Shown: piece by piece, positions 18,457 to 56,103 of the stretch
How the letters are laid out: each line of letters opens with the position of its first letter
How positions within the stretch are numbered: position 1 is the first letter of the stretch
Source: Pleurocapsales cyanobacterium LEGE 10410
Lineage (GTDB): Bacteria > Cyanobacteriota > Cyanobacteriia > Cyanobacteriales > Xenococcaceae
Length of the DNA: 64,000 nucleotides
Direction of reading: 5' to 3'
Assembly: GCA_015207195.1 (NCBI GenBank)
Contig: JADEXJ010000009.1
Span: forward strand, 1 to 64,000
Position numbers and translations under genes: made by a program
Notes under the pieces: model-generated
The model's input: the letters and a program-made list of their open reading frames with translations, nothing else
Database searches by the model: none
What the model was told of the DNA's origin: nothing

Positions 18457-18948
18457 TCATTCATGTTTACTCTTTTGAGTAAAGACTTTGCCTTTACATT
18501 CAGGACAATCGGCAGGATTTAACCAATAAATTAATCCGTAACAATCGATCCCATACTCTGTCTCTAGATGAGATAAAAGCTTTTCAACATATTCTTCTAG
18601 CTCTGGTTGTCTCAGTCCCTGAGTATGCTGAGGTAACATTTGATGAGCTAGCTTATTACCCTGATAGATCTTGAGAGCGATCGCATGAACAAACTGATTT
18701 TCCTTACCGTAAATTTCTAGTTCTGCTCGATATGCTTCGGGTAGTATTAGTTCTATTGTAGCGATGCCCTTTTTCTTGGCAGCATTCTGACGGCGTTTAG
18801 CATTTACCTTACCAGGATTTCTTAGACGATTACGTTTGACACGACAATTATGCCCGACATAACATTCTGGATGCTTTTCTTTTGCCTCATCTTCTGTGCG
18901 GTAGTTCTTGGCACAATAGAGACATACTGGACTAGCTTTCCTGCCCAT
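18457..18948 (-). CDS. Zinc-ribbon-like third component of PrlF/YhaV module, copy A
   Basis: The 163-residue protein has an N-terminal Cys cluster (CLYCAKNY ... C-Y-V-G-H-N-C), a basic region (RVKRNRLRNPGKVNAKRR), a middle helical part and a C-terminal CPEC. Zinc binding is likely; function is not recognised. Its ATG overlaps the YhaV-A stop as TAATG, indicating tight coupling. The same gene follows YhaV in copy B, so it is a stable third member of the module. It might regulate, stabilise or be targeted by the toxin. Confidence 0.65.
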   Translation of the reverse strand: MGRKASPVCLYCAKNYRTEDEAKEKHPECYVGHNCRVKRNRLRNPGKVNAKRRQNAAKKKGIATIELILPEAYRAELEIYGKENQFVHAIALKIYQGNKLAHQMLPQHTQGLRQPELEEYVEKLLSHLETEYGIDCYGLIYWLNPADCPECKGKVFTQKSKHE

Positions 18949-19379
18949 TATTCATTATCCGAATCAATAAGATCTTTTAGTGAGAGAGGGAATTGACCTT
19001 TTTTAACCATCTTGGCAAATACGCGATAGCAGTCCTTTTTATCCCCCTCTTTCCTAGGAAAACCCAGCCACAGAATAATAATTACCTTTTGTTGTGGAAA
19101 TACCTTAAAGAAGAGTCGGTAGCGATTTGGTAATCCCATTTTCTTAAGACGACTATATTTGTCCAATGGCTTCCTGAGAGCAAAATATGAAGCTAGAGGA
19201 TCGTTTGGGATTTTTTCTTCAATACCAACAGTAAGAGCCTTAAACAACTTGACCTGGGGATGCTGTATAAAATCCTTTTGGGATAGACGCGATCGCAGGG
19301 ATTTAACCAAATTAAGTAATTGCTGCCATTGGTCGTTGAACAATGGATGAAACAAGATCGTCCATCCATTAATCTTCAT
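18948..19379 (-). CDS. yhaV: YhaV-family toxin, copy A
   Basis: The 143-residue protein begins with INGWTILFHPLFNDQWQQLL and contains PLDKYSRLKKMGLPNRYRLF and IIILWLGFPRKEGDKKDCYR, the hallmarks of YhaV, a RelE-like ribonuclease. It overlaps the upstream prlF-like gene by 11 bases. This copy lacks the 38-residue insertion of copy B and so represents the ancestral form. It lies just outside the Tn7-like transposon. Confidence 0.88.
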   Translation of the reverse strand: MKINGWTILFHPLFNDQWQQLLNLVKSLRSRLSQKDFIQHPQVKLFKALTVGIEEKIPNDPLASYFALRKPLDKYSRLKKMGLPNRYRLFFKVFPQQKVIIILWLGFPRKEGDKKDCYRVFAKMVKKGQFPLSLKDLIDSDNE

Positions 19380-19701
19380 CGATTTCTACTCCCGCCAACA
19401 ACTCATTTGCTTCCTGACTCATATTTTCTGTATATGCCTTCATAGAGTTAGGCTCTTCAATAGCAGACTTCATCAAAAAATCTAGAAACAAGCTCATCAT
19501 CACATCATCTTTATCTTCTTCTGTTTTCTCAACAGGATTTAGGCGAACTAATAGTGTGTTCTCATCCAAAACTTCAACATGGCCGCTAGCACCAACCAAC
19601 TCAGGATGATCTTTAGAAAAAGCGCGAGGTAAGCGATATCCATCTTGATTACCAATCTTAGCTGGAGAGACTGGGTAATTGTTGTTTGAGTTGTTAGACA
19701 T
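19369..19701 (-). CDS. prlF: PrlF-like antitoxin, copy A
   Basis: The 110-residue product has a short swapped-hairpin-like segment (RLPRAFSKDHPELVGASGHV then EVLDENTLLVRL), as in PrlF/AbrB-type antitoxins, and an acidic C-terminus. It precedes YhaV and overlaps it. Its upstream region was cut by the Tn7-like insertion 31 bases before its ATG, so the original -10/-35 region now lies beyond the far end of the transposon. The transposon end now supplies TATACT/TATAAC-like sequences. Confidence 0.85.
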   Translation of the reverse strand: MSNNSNNNYPVSPAKIGNQDGYRLPRAFSKDHPELVGASGHVEVLDENTLLVRLNPVEKTEEDKDDVMMSLFLDFLMKSAIEEPNSMKAYTENMSQEANELLAGVEIDED

Positions 19702-19915: not shown

Positions 19916-20398
19916 TTAATATCGTGGTCTTTCTGAGTGAATCTTGCATTCAGGACAATCATCGGCATTAAGCCAGTAAATTAAGCCAAAACAATCGATT
20001 CCGTATTCAGTCTTTAGATGGGCTAGCAGTTTATTGATATAGTCTTCAAGCTCAGACTGTCTAAGTCCTTGCGTATGCTGGGGTAACATTTGATGTGAAA
20101 GCTTGTTACCTTGATAAATCTTAAGAGAGATCGCATGAACAAACTGATTTTCTTTACCGTAGATTTCCAACTCAGCGCGATATGCTTCAGGAAGAGTCGG
20201 TGTTAAGGTCTTAATTCCTTTTTCTCTGGCACTATTGGCGCGACGTTTAGCATTAACTTTATTAGCCTTTCTAAGACGATAGCGTTTAACACGGCAGTTA
20301 TGTTCAACATAACATTCGGCATTCTTTTCTCTTGCCTCATCTTCTGTGCGGTAATTCTTGGCACAGTATACACATTTAGGATTAGCTTTCCTGCCCAT
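19916..20398 (-). CDS. Zinc-ribbon-like third component, copy B
   Basis: Paralogue of the gene at 18457-18948, with the same N-terminal C-x-x-C, basic region and C-terminal CPEC; the C-terminus is shorter and different (KIHSERPRY). I start it at ATG 20398, which matches copy A; an upstream extension to 20410 is not conserved. A 7-bp deletion in the overlap with YhaV-B has changed the junction, so the two genes now overlap by 17 bases. It is the first cargo gene at the left end of the transposon. Confidence 0.65.
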   Translation of the reverse strand: MGRKANPKCVYCAKNYRTEDEAREKNAECYVEHNCRVKRYRLRKANKVNAKRRANSAREKGIKTLTPTLPEAYRAELEIYGKENQFVHAISLKIYQGNKLSHQMLPQHTQGLRQSELEDYINKLLAHLKTEYGIDCFGLIYWLNADDCPECKIHSERPRY

Positions 20399-20936
20399 TA
20401 TCCGAATCAATAATATCTTTCAGTGAGAGAGGAAATTGCCCTTTTTTAACCATCTTGGCAAAAACACGATAACAGTCTTTTTTATCCCCCTCTTCCTCGC
20501 GCGTACATGCGGCTGAAGCCTTTGTCTTGCGTCTTACGCCGAACGGGGCTAACGCCTCAGCGTCGCGAAGCGACTTTGCCCCGATAGGGGCTGTGGGTCG
20601 CTCGTCTTTTCTAGGAAAACCCAACCACAGAATAACGATCGCCTTTTGTTGTGGAAATACCTTGAAGAAAAGACGGTAGCGATTCGGCAGCCCCATCTTC
20701 TTGAGACGACTATATTTATCCAATGGCTTCTGGGGAGCAAAGTATGAAGCTAAGGGTTCGTTTGGGATCTTTTCTTCAATACCAACAGTAAGAGCCTTAA
20801 ACAATTTGACTTGTGGATGTTGAACAAAGTCTTCTTGAGACAAACGCGATCGCAAAGATTTAACTAAATTAAGTAATTGCTGCCACTGGTCGTCGAACAA
20901 TGGATGAAACAAGATAGTCCACCCATTAATCTTCAT
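20382..20936 (-). CDS. yhaV: YhaV-family toxin, copy B, with in-frame insertion
   Basis: Paralogue of copy A, identical in layout but with 38 extra residues between GFPRK and EGDKKD. The extra segment starts DERPTAPIGAKSLRDAEALA and corresponds to a 114-bp GC-rich palindromic insertion (about 20497-20610). A 7-bp deletion removes the original stop and adds three C-terminal residues. The insertion is close to the conserved C-terminal core (WLGFPRK...CYRVFAKMVKKG), so toxin activity may be altered or lost. The gene overlaps its antitoxin by 11 bases. Confidence 0.85.
   Translation of the reverse strand: MKINGWTILFHPLFDDQWQQLLNLVKSLRSRLSQEDFVQHPQVKLFKALTVGIEEKIPNEPLASYFAPQKPLDKYSRLKKMGLPNRYRLFFKVFPQQKAIVILWLGFPRKDERPTAPIGAKSLRDAEALAPFGVRRKTKASAACTREEEGDKKDCYRVFAKMVKKGQFPLSLKDIIDSDNGQES
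20497..20610. repeat. 114-bp palindromic insertion in yhaV-B
   Basis: Absent from copy A (19050 region). It contains ACATGCGGCTGAAGCCTTTG (also at 52622-52641 with one difference), GGGGCTAACGCCTCAGCG, and TTTGCCCCGATAGGGGCTGT (also near 55940). GC-rich, with several internal inverted repeats, and a length divisible by three. Edges are within a few bases. Confidence 0.8.
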
Positions 20937-21258
20937 CGATTTCTACTCCCGCCAATAATTCATTTGCTTCCCGACTCATGTTTTCTGTATATGCCTTCAT
21001 AGAGCTAGGTTCTTCAATGGCAGACTTCATCAGAAAGTCCAAAAACAAACTCATCATTACGTCATCTTTATCTTCTTCTGTTTTCTCAACAGGATTTAGA
21101 CGAACCAATAGCGTATTCTCATTCAAAACTTCGACATGACCGCTAGCGCCAACTAGTTCGGGATGATCTTTGGAAAAAGCACGAGGTAAGCGATATCCAT
21201 CTTGGTTACCAATCTTAGCTGGAGAAACTGGGTAATTGTTGCTTGAGTTATCGGACAT
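20926..21258 (-). CDS. prlF: PrlF-like antitoxin, copy B
   Basis: 110 residues, very close to copy A (few substitutions near the N-terminus and at residues about 45 and 83). Its promoter region is intact: TATAAT on the minus strand near 21294-21299, inside the 18-bp sequence ATTACAATTTATTATAAC. That 18-bp sequence is also the right flank of the transposon at 26672. Copy B is therefore likely the normally expressed antitoxin. Confidence 0.85.
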   Translation of the reverse strand: MSDNSSNNYPVSPAKIGNQDGYRLPRAFSKDHPELVGASGHVEVLNENTLLVRLNPVEKTEEDKDDVMMSLFLDFLMKSAIEEPSSMKAYTENMSREANELLAGVEIDED

Positions 21259-23564: not shown

Positions 23565-25868
23565 TTACTTAGATAAACCTTTAAAAACGCTCCATCCCAA
23601 CAAATCTGGCTGCCAATTGTCTTCTGCTTCTACCTTTGTCTGTTCTGCCCGATCTGCCAACTCTAATTCTGCTACCTGGATTACTTCTACCTCATCTACC
23701 GACTCTAATTCGCTGTCTTCTGACTGTAGTTCTAGGTTTAAGTCTGCTCTGCTTTTGATAACTTTCACAGAATGAGTCTCCAATTTTGGTGAAATAGAAG
23801 GCGTAGCGATCGCTTGTGCTGGGCTTCCCAGTGCACCTTCGCAATTTGAGATTCCGTTGAGAGAAGTTGGTTCGTTAACAATCGCTTCTCTGTCAATTGT
23901 TTTAGTAATATTGTTCTGCTTTGAATCTAAGTCAGACGAAGTTTTTTTGTCGGTTTTACTTATGGATACCTGACTTTCTATACTTAGCCATCTCGCGCAG
24001 CGCATTCGCGCAGATCGTCGTCTTCGACGACTGGAAAAGCTTTGCTTTTCGCATTGACGAGTTTTGCCTCTCTTAGTTTTCTTCCACTCTCCTTCTACAA
24101 TATTTTGAATCTTTTCCTTAGCTAAAGCCAGAGCTACAATATCAATCTTGTCTGCTTCAATACGCGCCAACTGTTTAATTACTTTGTGTTGCCAGAGAGT
24201 CAATCCCTGAGTATACTCCTGGTGCAATGCGGGTACTTCGATAAACTGATAGTTAACTGAGTCCAAGACGTATACTCTCGACAAATCAGTCGGATCGTAT
24301 TTGACCTTAGTTTTAGTAGTTTTTCTCAGTTCTGAACGTAAACGGGCTAATTCGCTACAGTTATAAATTAAACCTTCAAATTCTATTCCTCTTCTAGTTA
24401 CGGTACGCTCGACTATCGCCCCAATCAAAGCTTTGAGTTCGTTCTTCGACGATGGCAAAGCTGGAGGGAAAGAAGCGATTGCTTTCGACCAAACTTTCTG
24501 TCGAGGTGATTTTAGCTGTGGATGGGAACTTTGATTGTAGATATCGACTATGAATATATGCAAAATTTCTTGTAGCGCATCAAAGGAAATGACTGCATTC
24601 TTCTTCGAGTCGTAATCGTTTTGCTGCATAAACTTGGCAAAAGTTTTTCCTGGCTGATGAGAAAGCAGTTGAGTATTTAAAGCACCGAAGTATCTTTCAA
24701 TCGCACTCTTGTACCAGGGCATTTTAGGCGGACAATATTGAATGACAATGCCTAAACTCAGACAAGCATCTTCAAAAGAGGTGCTATAAAATTCTTTGCC
24801 GTTATCGACCACGATCGTTTCTGGTAATCCATAGGTATCCCAATCATTTTCTACGCTTGGATATGAAGCTTTCAGATAATCCTTAGTCCCGATAGCGTGC
24901 GACATACACTGCATTACCGATAGGTAACTTGGAGGGTTGAAGCTAGCGTAGTAGCCTAAAACAACTCCTGAATACTTGTCTACCGCGCTGGTGAACCAGG
25001 GTGTTCCAATCGGCAATCTAGTCTCTGTATCGACTACAAACAAAGGTAGCTTAGTATGGTCAATCTCTACTCTTTCCAATGGGCGACTCGGACGAGGACC
25101 AAGTTTTATAGGGTCATTCATCGAACCAGCAATCCGACGACCATAGCGGGCAACAGCAGTTTTTTGAGGATCTAATTTGGCGATTGCTCGATAAATAGTC
25201 ATGTGACTGGGAATAGCCAATTCTTCTTGACCCAACTTCGCTCTAATACGGTTCGATTGATTAATGCCAATAATTACTCTTTCATAAACATCCATCCCTT
25301 CAGCTTGAGTAGGATTCAGGTACACTTGTTCGATAGCATCTTTGATAATTTGCTTGACTTCTGGATTTAAGCGAGATTTGTGGTTTCCTTTAGCCAAATG
25401 AAGAGGAACTAAAGAACGAATATCTTTGTCTGACGCTATGTAATTTTTATACCAGCGATAGAGAGTTGACCACGAAGGAGGTTTGCTGTCTTCAATCTCT
25501 TGAGAGACTTCAGCGATAACTAGTTTGAGAGTCTTGGCAGTTTGCTTGTCTGGAGTAGATTTGAGAACTCGACTCACGTAACTATATTTTCTTCTGGCTT
25601 CTTCTCTCAAAGCTTCTGGCAACTGAGTAAAATCGATATGGCTGAAGCTATTGTTTCTTTGTTCTCTATCCTCGAAACGATCGCTATTTAGAAACTGAAG
25701 CTCTCCTTTGAACAGCAACTGAGTTAGAACAGTTTCTTTTAGCTTGGAACTGGTGTTGGTTAATAGGTTCTTAAGTCGAACCTCTCTATTAGGTAGGCGT
25801 TCTTCAAGGCTGTACTCCTGACCCTGTAGAAGTAAATGTAATCCTTTCTTCAGTTGGATTCTATTCAT
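23565..25868 (-). CDS. tnsB: TnsB DDE transposase
   Basis: 767 residues. N-terminal HTH-rich region to about 240, RNase H-like core with catalytic D270 (VEIDHT), D355 (VVDNGKEF) and E391 (AIERYFG), then a C-terminal beta-barrel and tail. It cuts and joins the 3' ends and binds the end repeats. Residues about 603-627 ([20 protein letters not shown]) come from a GC-rich palindromic insertion (23991-24057) in the flexible linker before the C-terminal TnsC-contact tail, still in frame. It follows tnsA by 4 bases. Confidence 0.9.
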   Translation of the reverse strand: MNRIQLKKGLHLLLQGQEYSLEERLPNREVRLKNLLTNTSSKLKETVLTQLLFKGELQFLNSDRFEDREQRNNSFSHIDFTQLPEALREEARRKYSYVSRVLKSTPDKQTAKTLKLVIAEVSQEIEDSKPPSWSTLYRWYKNYIASDKDIRSLVPLHLAKGNHKSRLNPEVKQIIKDAIEQVYLNPTQAEGMDVYERVIIGINQSNRIRAKLGQEELAIPSHMTIYRAIAKLDPQKTAVARYGRRIAGSMNDPIKLGPRPSRPLERVEIDHTKLPLFVVDTETRLPIGTPWFTSAVDKYSGVVLGYYASFNPPSYLSVMQCMSHAIGTKDYLKASYPSVENDWDTYGLPETIVVDNGKEFYSTSFEDACLSLGIVIQYCPPKMPWYKSAIERYFGALNTQLLSHQPGKTFAKFMQQNDYDSKKNAVISFDALQEILHIFIVDIYNQSSHPQLKSPRQKVWSKAIASFPPALPSSKNELKALIGAIVERTVTRRGIEFEGLIYNCSELARLRSELRKTTKTKVKYDPTDLSRVYVLDSVNYQFIEVPALHQEYTQGLTLWQHKVIKQLARIEADKIDIVALALAKEKIQNIVEGEWKKTKRGKTRQCEKQSFSSRRRRRSARMRCARWLSIESQVSISKTDKKTSSDLDSKQNNITKTIDREAIVNEPTSLNGISNCEGALGSPAQAIATPSISPKLETHSVKVIKSRADLNLELQSEDSELESVDEVEVIQVAELELADRAEQTKVEAEDNWQPDLLGWSVFKGLSK
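23991..24057. repeat. Palindromic insertion in tnsB
   Basis: Contains CAGCGCATTCGCGCAGATCG and then TCGTCTTCGACGACTGG. The same core is in the RES toxin gene (27652), the ISAs1 transposase (63148) and, inverted, in the cluster near 56004-56040. Reading frame is kept. Confidence 0.75.
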
Positions 25869-55784: not shown

Positions 55785-56103
55785 TGAGCCCGATCGAATT
55801 GTCAACGAAGCGATTGGCTTTATTGATGCCCAGTGCCAAGGAATATTCATGATAAACTCCTTTAGGACGAAGCGCGATCGCTTCTTAATGCAGTCGCACG
55901 GCGCATATGCGCCATCGTCATGCAAAGCATAACTTTGCCCCGATAGGGGCTGTATGGGGGTTTCCCCCATATGCTTGCGGTATCCCACGGGCGCGAATGC
56001 GCCCCAGTCGTCTCGACGACGATCTGCACGTATGTGCTGTGGGACAACGCGCGTGACCGAAGGGAATCCTTTAGGGCATCGCTTTTTTAATTGATGACGT
56101 GCT
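55785..56103. other. Intergenic region of palindromic repeats, 319 bp
   Basis: No gene. Nearly all of 55870-56090 is a mosaic of the GC-rich palindromic elements found elsewhere in coding genes of this window. Confidence 0.6.
55870..56090. repeat. Cluster of nested palindromic elements
   Basis: Contains GGCGCATATGCGCC, TTTGCCCCGATAGGGGCTGT (as in the yhaV-B insertion), TATGGGGGTTTCCCCCATA (as in the helicase insertion), GGGCGCGAATGCGCCC, CCAGTCGTC ... GACGACGATCTGC (as in tnsB, RES and ISAs1, inverted) and CGTGACCGAAGGGAATCC (as at 38525). Confidence 0.8.

What the first reader, a model, noticed from the sequence alone, without database searches (positions are those of the whole stretch)
20497..20610. 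In-frame 114-bp palindromic insertion in yhaV-B shown by its paralogue
Copies A and B of YhaV are close paralogues 1.5 kb apart. Copy B has 38 extra residues where copy A has none, and the extra DNA is a GC-rich palindromic mosaic with fragments found elsewhere in the window. This is a direct before/after pair for an element that inserts in genes without breaking the frame, similar in spirit to Rickettsia palindromic elements.
Basis: seen in the sequence. Interest (0 to 1): 0.75.

Follow-up and report, generated by a model that had tools for sequence, protein, structure and literature searches.

The report
Growing hairpin repeat inside toxin gene
A toxin gene in a cyanobacterium carries 114 extra bases that add 38 amino acids without breaking the gene; they belong to a family of tiny hairpin-rich repeats built from interchangeable modules, and sister genes show the empty site and a smaller form of the insert.

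Summary
Confirmed: yhaV-B (20382-20936, minus) has 114 extra bp (38 codons) that yhaV-A lacks. A third yhaV in the same genome has a 48-bp in-frame insert at the same site. B equals that 48-bp shell plus two cassettes, so the 114 bp are composite and probably grew in place; in a five-gene tree insert carriers and non-carriers separate.

The insert belongs to a modular multi-hairpin repeat family. Stems vary but stay complementary while unpaired linkers are conserved (39 double-change cells against 13.6 in shuffles). A 44-nt shell model hits 27 of 27 genomes of the family (651 matches); the long core hits 14 of 27 (99). Before/after sites: P450 (51 nt, three sites), D-Ala ligase (45), agrE (105), HAD phosphatase (66).

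In-gene shells are mostly in frame (18 against 5 apparently broken, of 72), but most copies show no spanning gene, and one in-frame copy splits a HAD motif, so survival under selection explains the pattern. Closest known: cyanobacterial SDR elements, REPs and Rickettsia palindromic elements. Mobilising enzyme unknown; single-strand (HUH-type) transposition is my leading guess, untested.

The parts
18948..19379 (-). yhaV-A, paralogue without insert
   Evidence: ORF, Toxin_YhaV 1.7e-46
20382..20936 (-). yhaV-B, paralogue with insert
   Evidence: ORF 184 aa; Toxin_YhaV 5.6e-40, 2 stretches
20497..20610 (-). 114-bp insert (shell plus two cassettes); limits uncertain by a few bases
   Evidence: alignments; coordinates
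20526..20603 (-). long core matched by covariance model R1 (hairpins P2, P3, P4, P5)
   Evidence: 91.5 bits; this copy was in the training set
20545..20594 (-). P2-P3-P4 cassette, absent from the third paralogue (limits approximate by about one base)
   Evidence: five-way yhaV alignment; coordinates
20529..20539 (-). P5 hairpin of the shell (GCGT-AAG-ACGC)
   Evidence: R2 match 20520-20542; coordinates
20504..20525 (-). 22-nt P6 cassette ACAAAGG..CCGCATGTA, also found alone elsewhere
19369..19701 (-). ORF upstream of yhaV-A, probably its antitoxin (by position only, not tested)
20926..21258 (-). ORF upstream of yhaV-B, probably its antitoxin (by position only, not tested)
55884..55962 (-). second long-core relative in the window
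   Evidence: R1 50.8 bits
52623..52643 (-). P6-type module without a core match nearby
   Evidence: pattern hit
23992..24061 (-). 70-nt run of hairpins inside a transposase (rve/Mu-transpos_C) ORF, related in style
   Evidence: no empty relative was sought

Best explanation
The insert is a copy of a non-autonomous, modular, multi-hairpin repeat family of cyanobacteria. SHOWN: a shell of about 44-51 nt consists of a closing stem P1, the conserved strand GACCCCGCG, hairpin P5 and the strand CAAGGGAACGCG. A cassette of three hairpins (P2-P4) and a 22-nt hairpin cassette (P6) occur inside longer copies. Stems vary but remain largely complementary. In yhaV the empty (A), shell (C) and shell-plus-cassettes (B) states coexist in one genome, and the carriers form one side of a five-gene tree. 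INFERRED: the shell entered yhaV once in an ancestor and B later gained the cassettes in place. The hairpins and unpaired linkers are what the mobility machinery recognises, most likely an HUH/Y1 (IS200/IS605- or RAYT-type) single-strand transposition. In-frame copies are survivors of selection, helped by unit sizes such as 48 or 51 nt.
For: Insert and its derived state; tree split {A, G010}|{B, C, G006 yhaV} with 100% bootstrap on 1212 gap-free columns. Covariation: long core, 13 copies, 39 double-change cells against 13.6 shuffled, 92.8% paired against at most 49% when slid; shell 49 against 14.9 in 53 distinct rows; the 5-nt P1 arm has its complement downstream in 30 of 45 copies (those of 85 with a recognisable 5' linker, deduplicated) against a mean of 8.7 and a maximum of 21 in 2000 permutations. 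Insertion: relatives with the empty site for agrE, HAD, two P450 sites in G006, one in G003, and Ddl; sizes 105, 66, 51, 51, 51 and 45 nt. Direct repeats of 6 nt or more flank 20 of 50 copies against a mean of 3.9 and a maximum of 10 in 1000 permutations. Frame: 18 in frame against 5 broken of 72 shells, p 1.3e-5 against 1/3; 13 of 15 in-frame ORFs submitted have a Pfam domain.
Against: No transposase was tied to the element and no search for one was run. With fixed ends, exact flank duplications are not above permutations; for the ACGAGC...CGCGAG end type, 4-nt duplications with up to one mismatch are 12 of 30 against a mean of 6.5 and a maximum of 13 in 2000, borderline. About 8 of the 20 repeats lie in heptamer-type flanks. 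B could have received a ready-made long copy, or the site could be hit repeatedly: P450 and Uma2 genes also carry shells at the same place in different species (read). B and C are sisters with only 62% bootstrap. The in-frame/broken split is ORF-based with different thresholds (50 and 60 codons), and L290-L292 share flanks. With another criterion on 48 AGCG-type copies, only 10 of 15 with long open flanks connect in frame. Alignment A5 was fitted to its model.
Confidence: 0.74

Rival explanations
1. Spread through an RNA copy: the folded transcript is reverse-transcribed and inserted, as I recall being proposed for SDR elements in Nostoc.
For: RNA-style covariation of stems with conserved unpaired linkers; direct repeats of varied length at some sites, for example TTGCTCATTGA and TTTGAC.
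Against: Two of the three P450 inserts show no flanking repeat by eye, and the third only 4 nt; the one reverse transcriptase met is a group II intron protein that is itself hit by an insert (L015).
Confidence: 0.25
2. No mobility machinery is needed: quasi-palindrome template switching during replication creates and homogenises the hairpins, and recombination copies them around.
For: Arms stay complementary although their sequence changes, which intrastrand templating would also give; mosaics with further hairpins inside are seen.
Against: Same linkers and ends at many unrelated sites in 27 of 27 genomes and clean 51-nt before/after sites look like insertion of a defined unit.
Confidence: 0.15
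3. The insert is a selected feature of the toxin (a regulatory loop) rather than a tolerated parasite.
For: Kept in frame in both B and C.
Against: The same element sits in unrelated proteins, in both orientations and in several reading frames; the G006 yhaV with an insert here is frame-broken.
Confidence: 0.05
4. The element is intrinsically frame-safe: its unit length is held at a multiple of three because it spends time in genes.
For: 41 of 48 units of one end type have lengths divisible by 3, including 15 of 15 between long open flanks.
Against: 30 of the 48 are the same 51-nt shell; of the 13 non-51 units elsewhere only 6 are divisible by 3; and only 10 of the 15 connect in frame.
Confidence: 0.12

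Closest known systems
Small dispersed repeats (SDR) of Nostoc and relatives (Elhai et al. 2008, Genome Res.; paper not held, features recalled; cited in PMC3116915)
   Same: Cyanobacterial, tiny (a 22-24-nt module stands alone), hairpin with compensatory changes, nested insertions, some among heptamer repeats (recalled features).
   Different: Here 44-51-nt shells and 100+-nt composites with up to five hairpins, often in frame in proteins; sequence identity to the SDR families could not be checked.
Rickettsia palindromic elements (RPE)
   Same: About 100-150-bp palindromic elements in frame in unrelated conserved genes (PMC10969869 and PMC2229807, passages seen).
   Different: Different host; modular mosaic of several small hairpins; most copies here show no spanning gene; translated in several frames and both strands rather than one conserved peptide.
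REP/REPIN with RAYT (PMC3116915, PMC3733652, passages seen)
   Same: Short palindromic repeats, some copies inside ORFs, known from cyanobacteria.
   Different: No GTAG in the shell consensus; multi-branched with freely varying stems; RAYT link not tested.
Double-hairpin elements of mitochondria (search listing only)
   Same: Small hairpin elements that spread (recalled).
   Different: Organellar; no homology claimed.

Membership tests
SDR (Elhai) | 21-27-nt unit found alone (recalled) | tested here: met
   P6-type 24-mers alone, by reading, at L020, L027, L034, L036; only this module fits, the shell is longer
SDR (Elhai) | Common secondary structure backed by compensatory changes (recalled) | tested here: met
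   for core and shell; P6 itself was not counted
SDR (Elhai) | Sequence match to a named SDR family | not testable with these tools
   paper not held
RPE | In-frame insertion in unrelated conserved genes | tested here: met
RPE | Conserved peptide in the element's ORF | tested here: not met
   both orientations and several frames are used
RPE | Sequence homology to RPE families | not tested
   no RPE sequence was fetched
REP (GTAG/CGTC) | GTAG or CGTC tag at one end | tested here: inconclusive
   no systematic tag search; one end type reads GACGAGCG, whose complement CGCTCGTC contains CGTC
REP/REPIN | Linked RAYT transposase | not tested
   no RAYT or Y1 search was run
MITE | Terminal inverted repeats of about 15-30 bp (PMC3733652) | tested here: not met
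   closing stem of 5-9 nt in 41 of 53 copies, which were selected for recognisable ends; none called in 12
MITE | Fixed target duplication | tested here: inconclusive
   exact duplications at permutation level; one-mismatch 4-mers borderline for one end type
Rfam RNA families | Match above gathering score | tested here: not met
   window 20300-20800: 2 hits, both far below gathering score

The most novel reading that the evidence does not exclude
A genomic parasite whose heritable identity is a hairpin architecture with fixed single-stranded linkers rather than a sequence: every stem can be rewritten, cassettes can be added after insertion, and the basic unit (51 nt, apparently inserted without target duplication) leaves reading frames intact, so that it can colonise even essential genes and enlarge proteins stepwise.
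Probability: 0.28. Interest if true: 0.82.

Novelty: new variant of a known kind. Interest (0 to 1): 0.62.

Why it matters
It gives an empty, a small and a large state of one gene in one genome, which makes the growth of palindromic mosaics directly testable, and it extends in-frame palindromic insertion from Rickettsia and REP-bearing bacteria to genes of this cyanobacterial family such as D-Ala-D-Ala ligase and P450. The covarying stems point to recognition of structure, which bears on the open question of how the smallest mobile repeats move.

Tried and rejected
Rfam gave nothing usable. PDB sequence search with YhaV-A found no relative at E 0.01. AlphaFold of YhaV-B with only A as alignment: pLDDT 43.7, unusable; the short form was not folded. 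A genome-contig scan with one P2 pattern gave 5 hits in non-cyanobacterial records, about what I expected by chance (records near the window's genome may be left out there); viral contigs 2 hits, not followed; plasmids none by DNA; viral YhaV relatives none. R1 in the class: only the own genome of 291, with 16 candidates scored in each and stricter filters; that search also missed G011, which has one weak match. Stop-poor frames as a special design: not supported; open frames are 71 sense and 64 antisense in 47 copies, against 63 per strand for shuffles of 53 rows. Orientation bias in genes: seemed present in long copies, not seen with shells. An RNA that splices out was considered; no test. 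A first flank script used a wrong pattern and found 12 rows; replaced. Papers PMC6513891 and PMC2884548: passages seen, not needed.

Rows dropped: the 5 lowest of 90 R1 matches; 1 of 73 R2 matches. Of 19 long copies with spanning ORFs, 10 were sent to Pfam and 9 were not; several of the 19 (for example L128, L135) have repeat-derived N-termini and may be spurious. Two in-frame shells (L291, L292) were not classified by Pfam.

Full report
1. Observation. The two yhaV copies differ by one long gap of 114 nt, present in B only; B stays open as 184 aa and both are Toxin_YhaV. Six homologues that my extraction could read across the site (L215, L218, L219, L223, L224, and L232 of G010) read GFPRKEGDKKDCY or close variants without an insert there (other loci gave no readable ORF in that script), so the insert is derived.

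2. A third state. The own genome holds a further yhaV (G000:C220, L237) with 48 extra nt at this place, reading DERPRVAVRRKGTREE. Side by side, C is GACGAGCGACCC-CGCGTCGCCGTCAGGCGCAAGGGAACGCGCGAG; B has the same ends and a P5 hairpin but a three-hairpin cassette after GACCC and a 22-nt cassette in place of GGAA. The yhaV of G006 also carries an insert here, with shell-like ends and other contents, and its frame is broken; R2 did not match it. The tree of 1212 gap-free columns separates A and G010 (no insert here) from B, C and G006 with 100% bootstrap; B with C has 62%. One entry followed by change in place is the simplest reading; repeated use of one site is not excluded. G010 has a different in-frame insert elsewhere in its yhaV.

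3. Anatomy. Thirteen long copies were aligned. The unpaired strands (GACCCACAG, CAAAG, GACG.TG, GTTCG, GCAAG) are mostly conserved, while stems P2, P3 and P4 change on both sides together: 39 double-change cells against 13.6 in shuffles; 92.8% of cells paired against 49% or less when slid. P5 is weaker (80.8% paired, one pair with a double change). The closing stem P1 covaries as well: 30 of 45 copies have the exact complement downstream against 8.7 on average and 21 at most in 2000 permutations. A shell model found 73 shells in 69 loci, with 49 double-change cells against 14.9 over 53 distinct rows, nearly all in P1; these loci were chosen with the model and the alignment was fitted to it. 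Several single copies fold with P1 closing a multi-branched loop; the yhaV-C shell and the yhaV-B insert fold otherwise.

4. Distribution. BLASTn: 10 of 40 genomes, the own one included. R1 long core: 14 of 27 genomes of the family, 99 matches, 25 in G016 and 21 each in G000 and G009. R2 shell: 27 of 27 genomes, 651 matches, 124 in G006. At most 150 candidates were scored per genome, so these are lower bounds. Wider: R2 in 18 of 388 class genomes with 13 candidates scored in each, R1 in 1 of 291 with 16. The host is taken to be a cyanobacterium from the five best named plasmid relatives of YhaV-A and a GCGATCGC (HIP1) site seen; no name was available.

5. Before and after (sizes checked). agrE/ArgZ of G006: 105 nt, empty in four aligned relatives. 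HAD phosphatase of G007: 66 nt, splitting CDFDGTIT into CDFG...YGTIT; five relatives have the intact motif. That this motif is catalytic is recalled knowledge. P450 of G006: two 51-nt inserts in one gene, six relatives empty; a P450 of G003 that is 48% identical has 51 nt, by reading at the same place as one of them, with three other P450 genes empty there. D-Ala ligase of G006: 45 nt, empty in the eight relatives shown; G006 has a single match to this protein. The three 51-nt inserts run from AGCG to CAAGAC (one search lists the unit lengths); two show no flanking repeat by eye, one has a 4-nt repeat (AGCG) that could be a duplication, and agrE has AGCGATG. For the other end type (ACGAGC...CGCGAG), 4-nt duplications with up to one mismatch are 12 of 30 against a permutation mean of 6.5 and maximum of 13, exact ones 3 against 1.3.

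6. Genes and frames. Long cores: 19 of 85 copies lie in a spanning ORF of 100 aa or more; of the 10 sent to Pfam, 8 have a domain. Shells: of 72, 18 are stop-free inside an ORF with at least 50 open codons on both sides, 5 have long open flanks that do not connect, and 49 have neither, the in-frame yhaV-C copy among them. Of the 18, 15 ORFs covering 16 insertions were sent to Pfam and 13 have a domain: Uma2 twice, TnpB twice, anthranilate-synthase type, CobN/Mg-chelatase, ISL3 transposase, D-Ala ligase, P450 twice, DUF1400, HSP20 (insert upstream of the domain), PIN. Two TnpB-type genes outside the family also carry in-frame shells. Of the 5 broken cases, L268 is an IS630 transposase with matching domains on either side, L264 follows an antitoxin domain and may be a gene boundary, L257 fragments gave no Pfam hit, and L263 and L312 were not sent. 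18 of 23 in frame exceeds one third (p 1.3e-5), with the caveats of different thresholds and shared flanks. A second count on 48 AGCG-type copies of any length gives 10 of 15 in frame. Both orientations and several frames are used.

7. Mechanism. Structure is kept where sequence is not, so the machinery that copies the element should read hairpins and linkers. Insertion with little or no duplication fits IS200/IS605-type single-strand transposition (family knowledge), but I ran no transposase search. An RNA route and quasi-palindrome templating are kept as rivals. In-frame bias is explained by loss of harmful insertions; the HAD case shows that in-frame need not mean harmless.

8. What is known. 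Passages of PMC10969869 and PMC2229807 describe RPEs in frame in conserved genes; passages of PMC3733652 describe REPs inside ORFs and cyanobacterial REPs; passages of PMC3116915 mention SDR elements, whose paper is not held and whose features I give from recall. My literature searches listed no paper that I could identify as describing this element; most subscription journals are missing from the library.

Noticed in passing
window 23992-24061 (-): A 70-nt run of hairpins inside the C-terminal part of an rve/Mu-transpos_C transposase ORF (23565-25868), perhaps another in-frame insert of this style.
   Followed up: partly
L026 about 1488-1547 (G007): A 22-codon in-frame insert splits the HAD motif CDFDGTIT; relatives have it intact. 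Either a dead enzyme or something removes the insert.
   Followed up: partly
L258 and L267; L266 and L294: Uma2 genes of two genera carry a shell at what reads as the same codon, and P450 genes of G003 and G006 likewise: recurrent insertion sites.
   Followed up: partly
L277, L286, L371, L374: Shells sit in frame in IS605 OrfB (TnpB) type genes four times.
   Followed up: partly
L130 (G006:C1:5226900-5234800): Seven P6-type modules within 8 kb, with differing stems.
   Followed up: no
L238 (G010 yhaV): A different palindromic in-frame insert (IGFADSTASLADASRH region) between GLP and RYRLFF.
   Followed up: no
L111, L115, L117, L118, L151: Elements embedded in AAAAGTC- or AAGTAGC-like heptamer repeats (by reading).
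   Followed up: no
L147 and L150 (G009): Near-identical elements with flanks that look like the same site in opposite orientation, perhaps an inversion.
   Followed up: no
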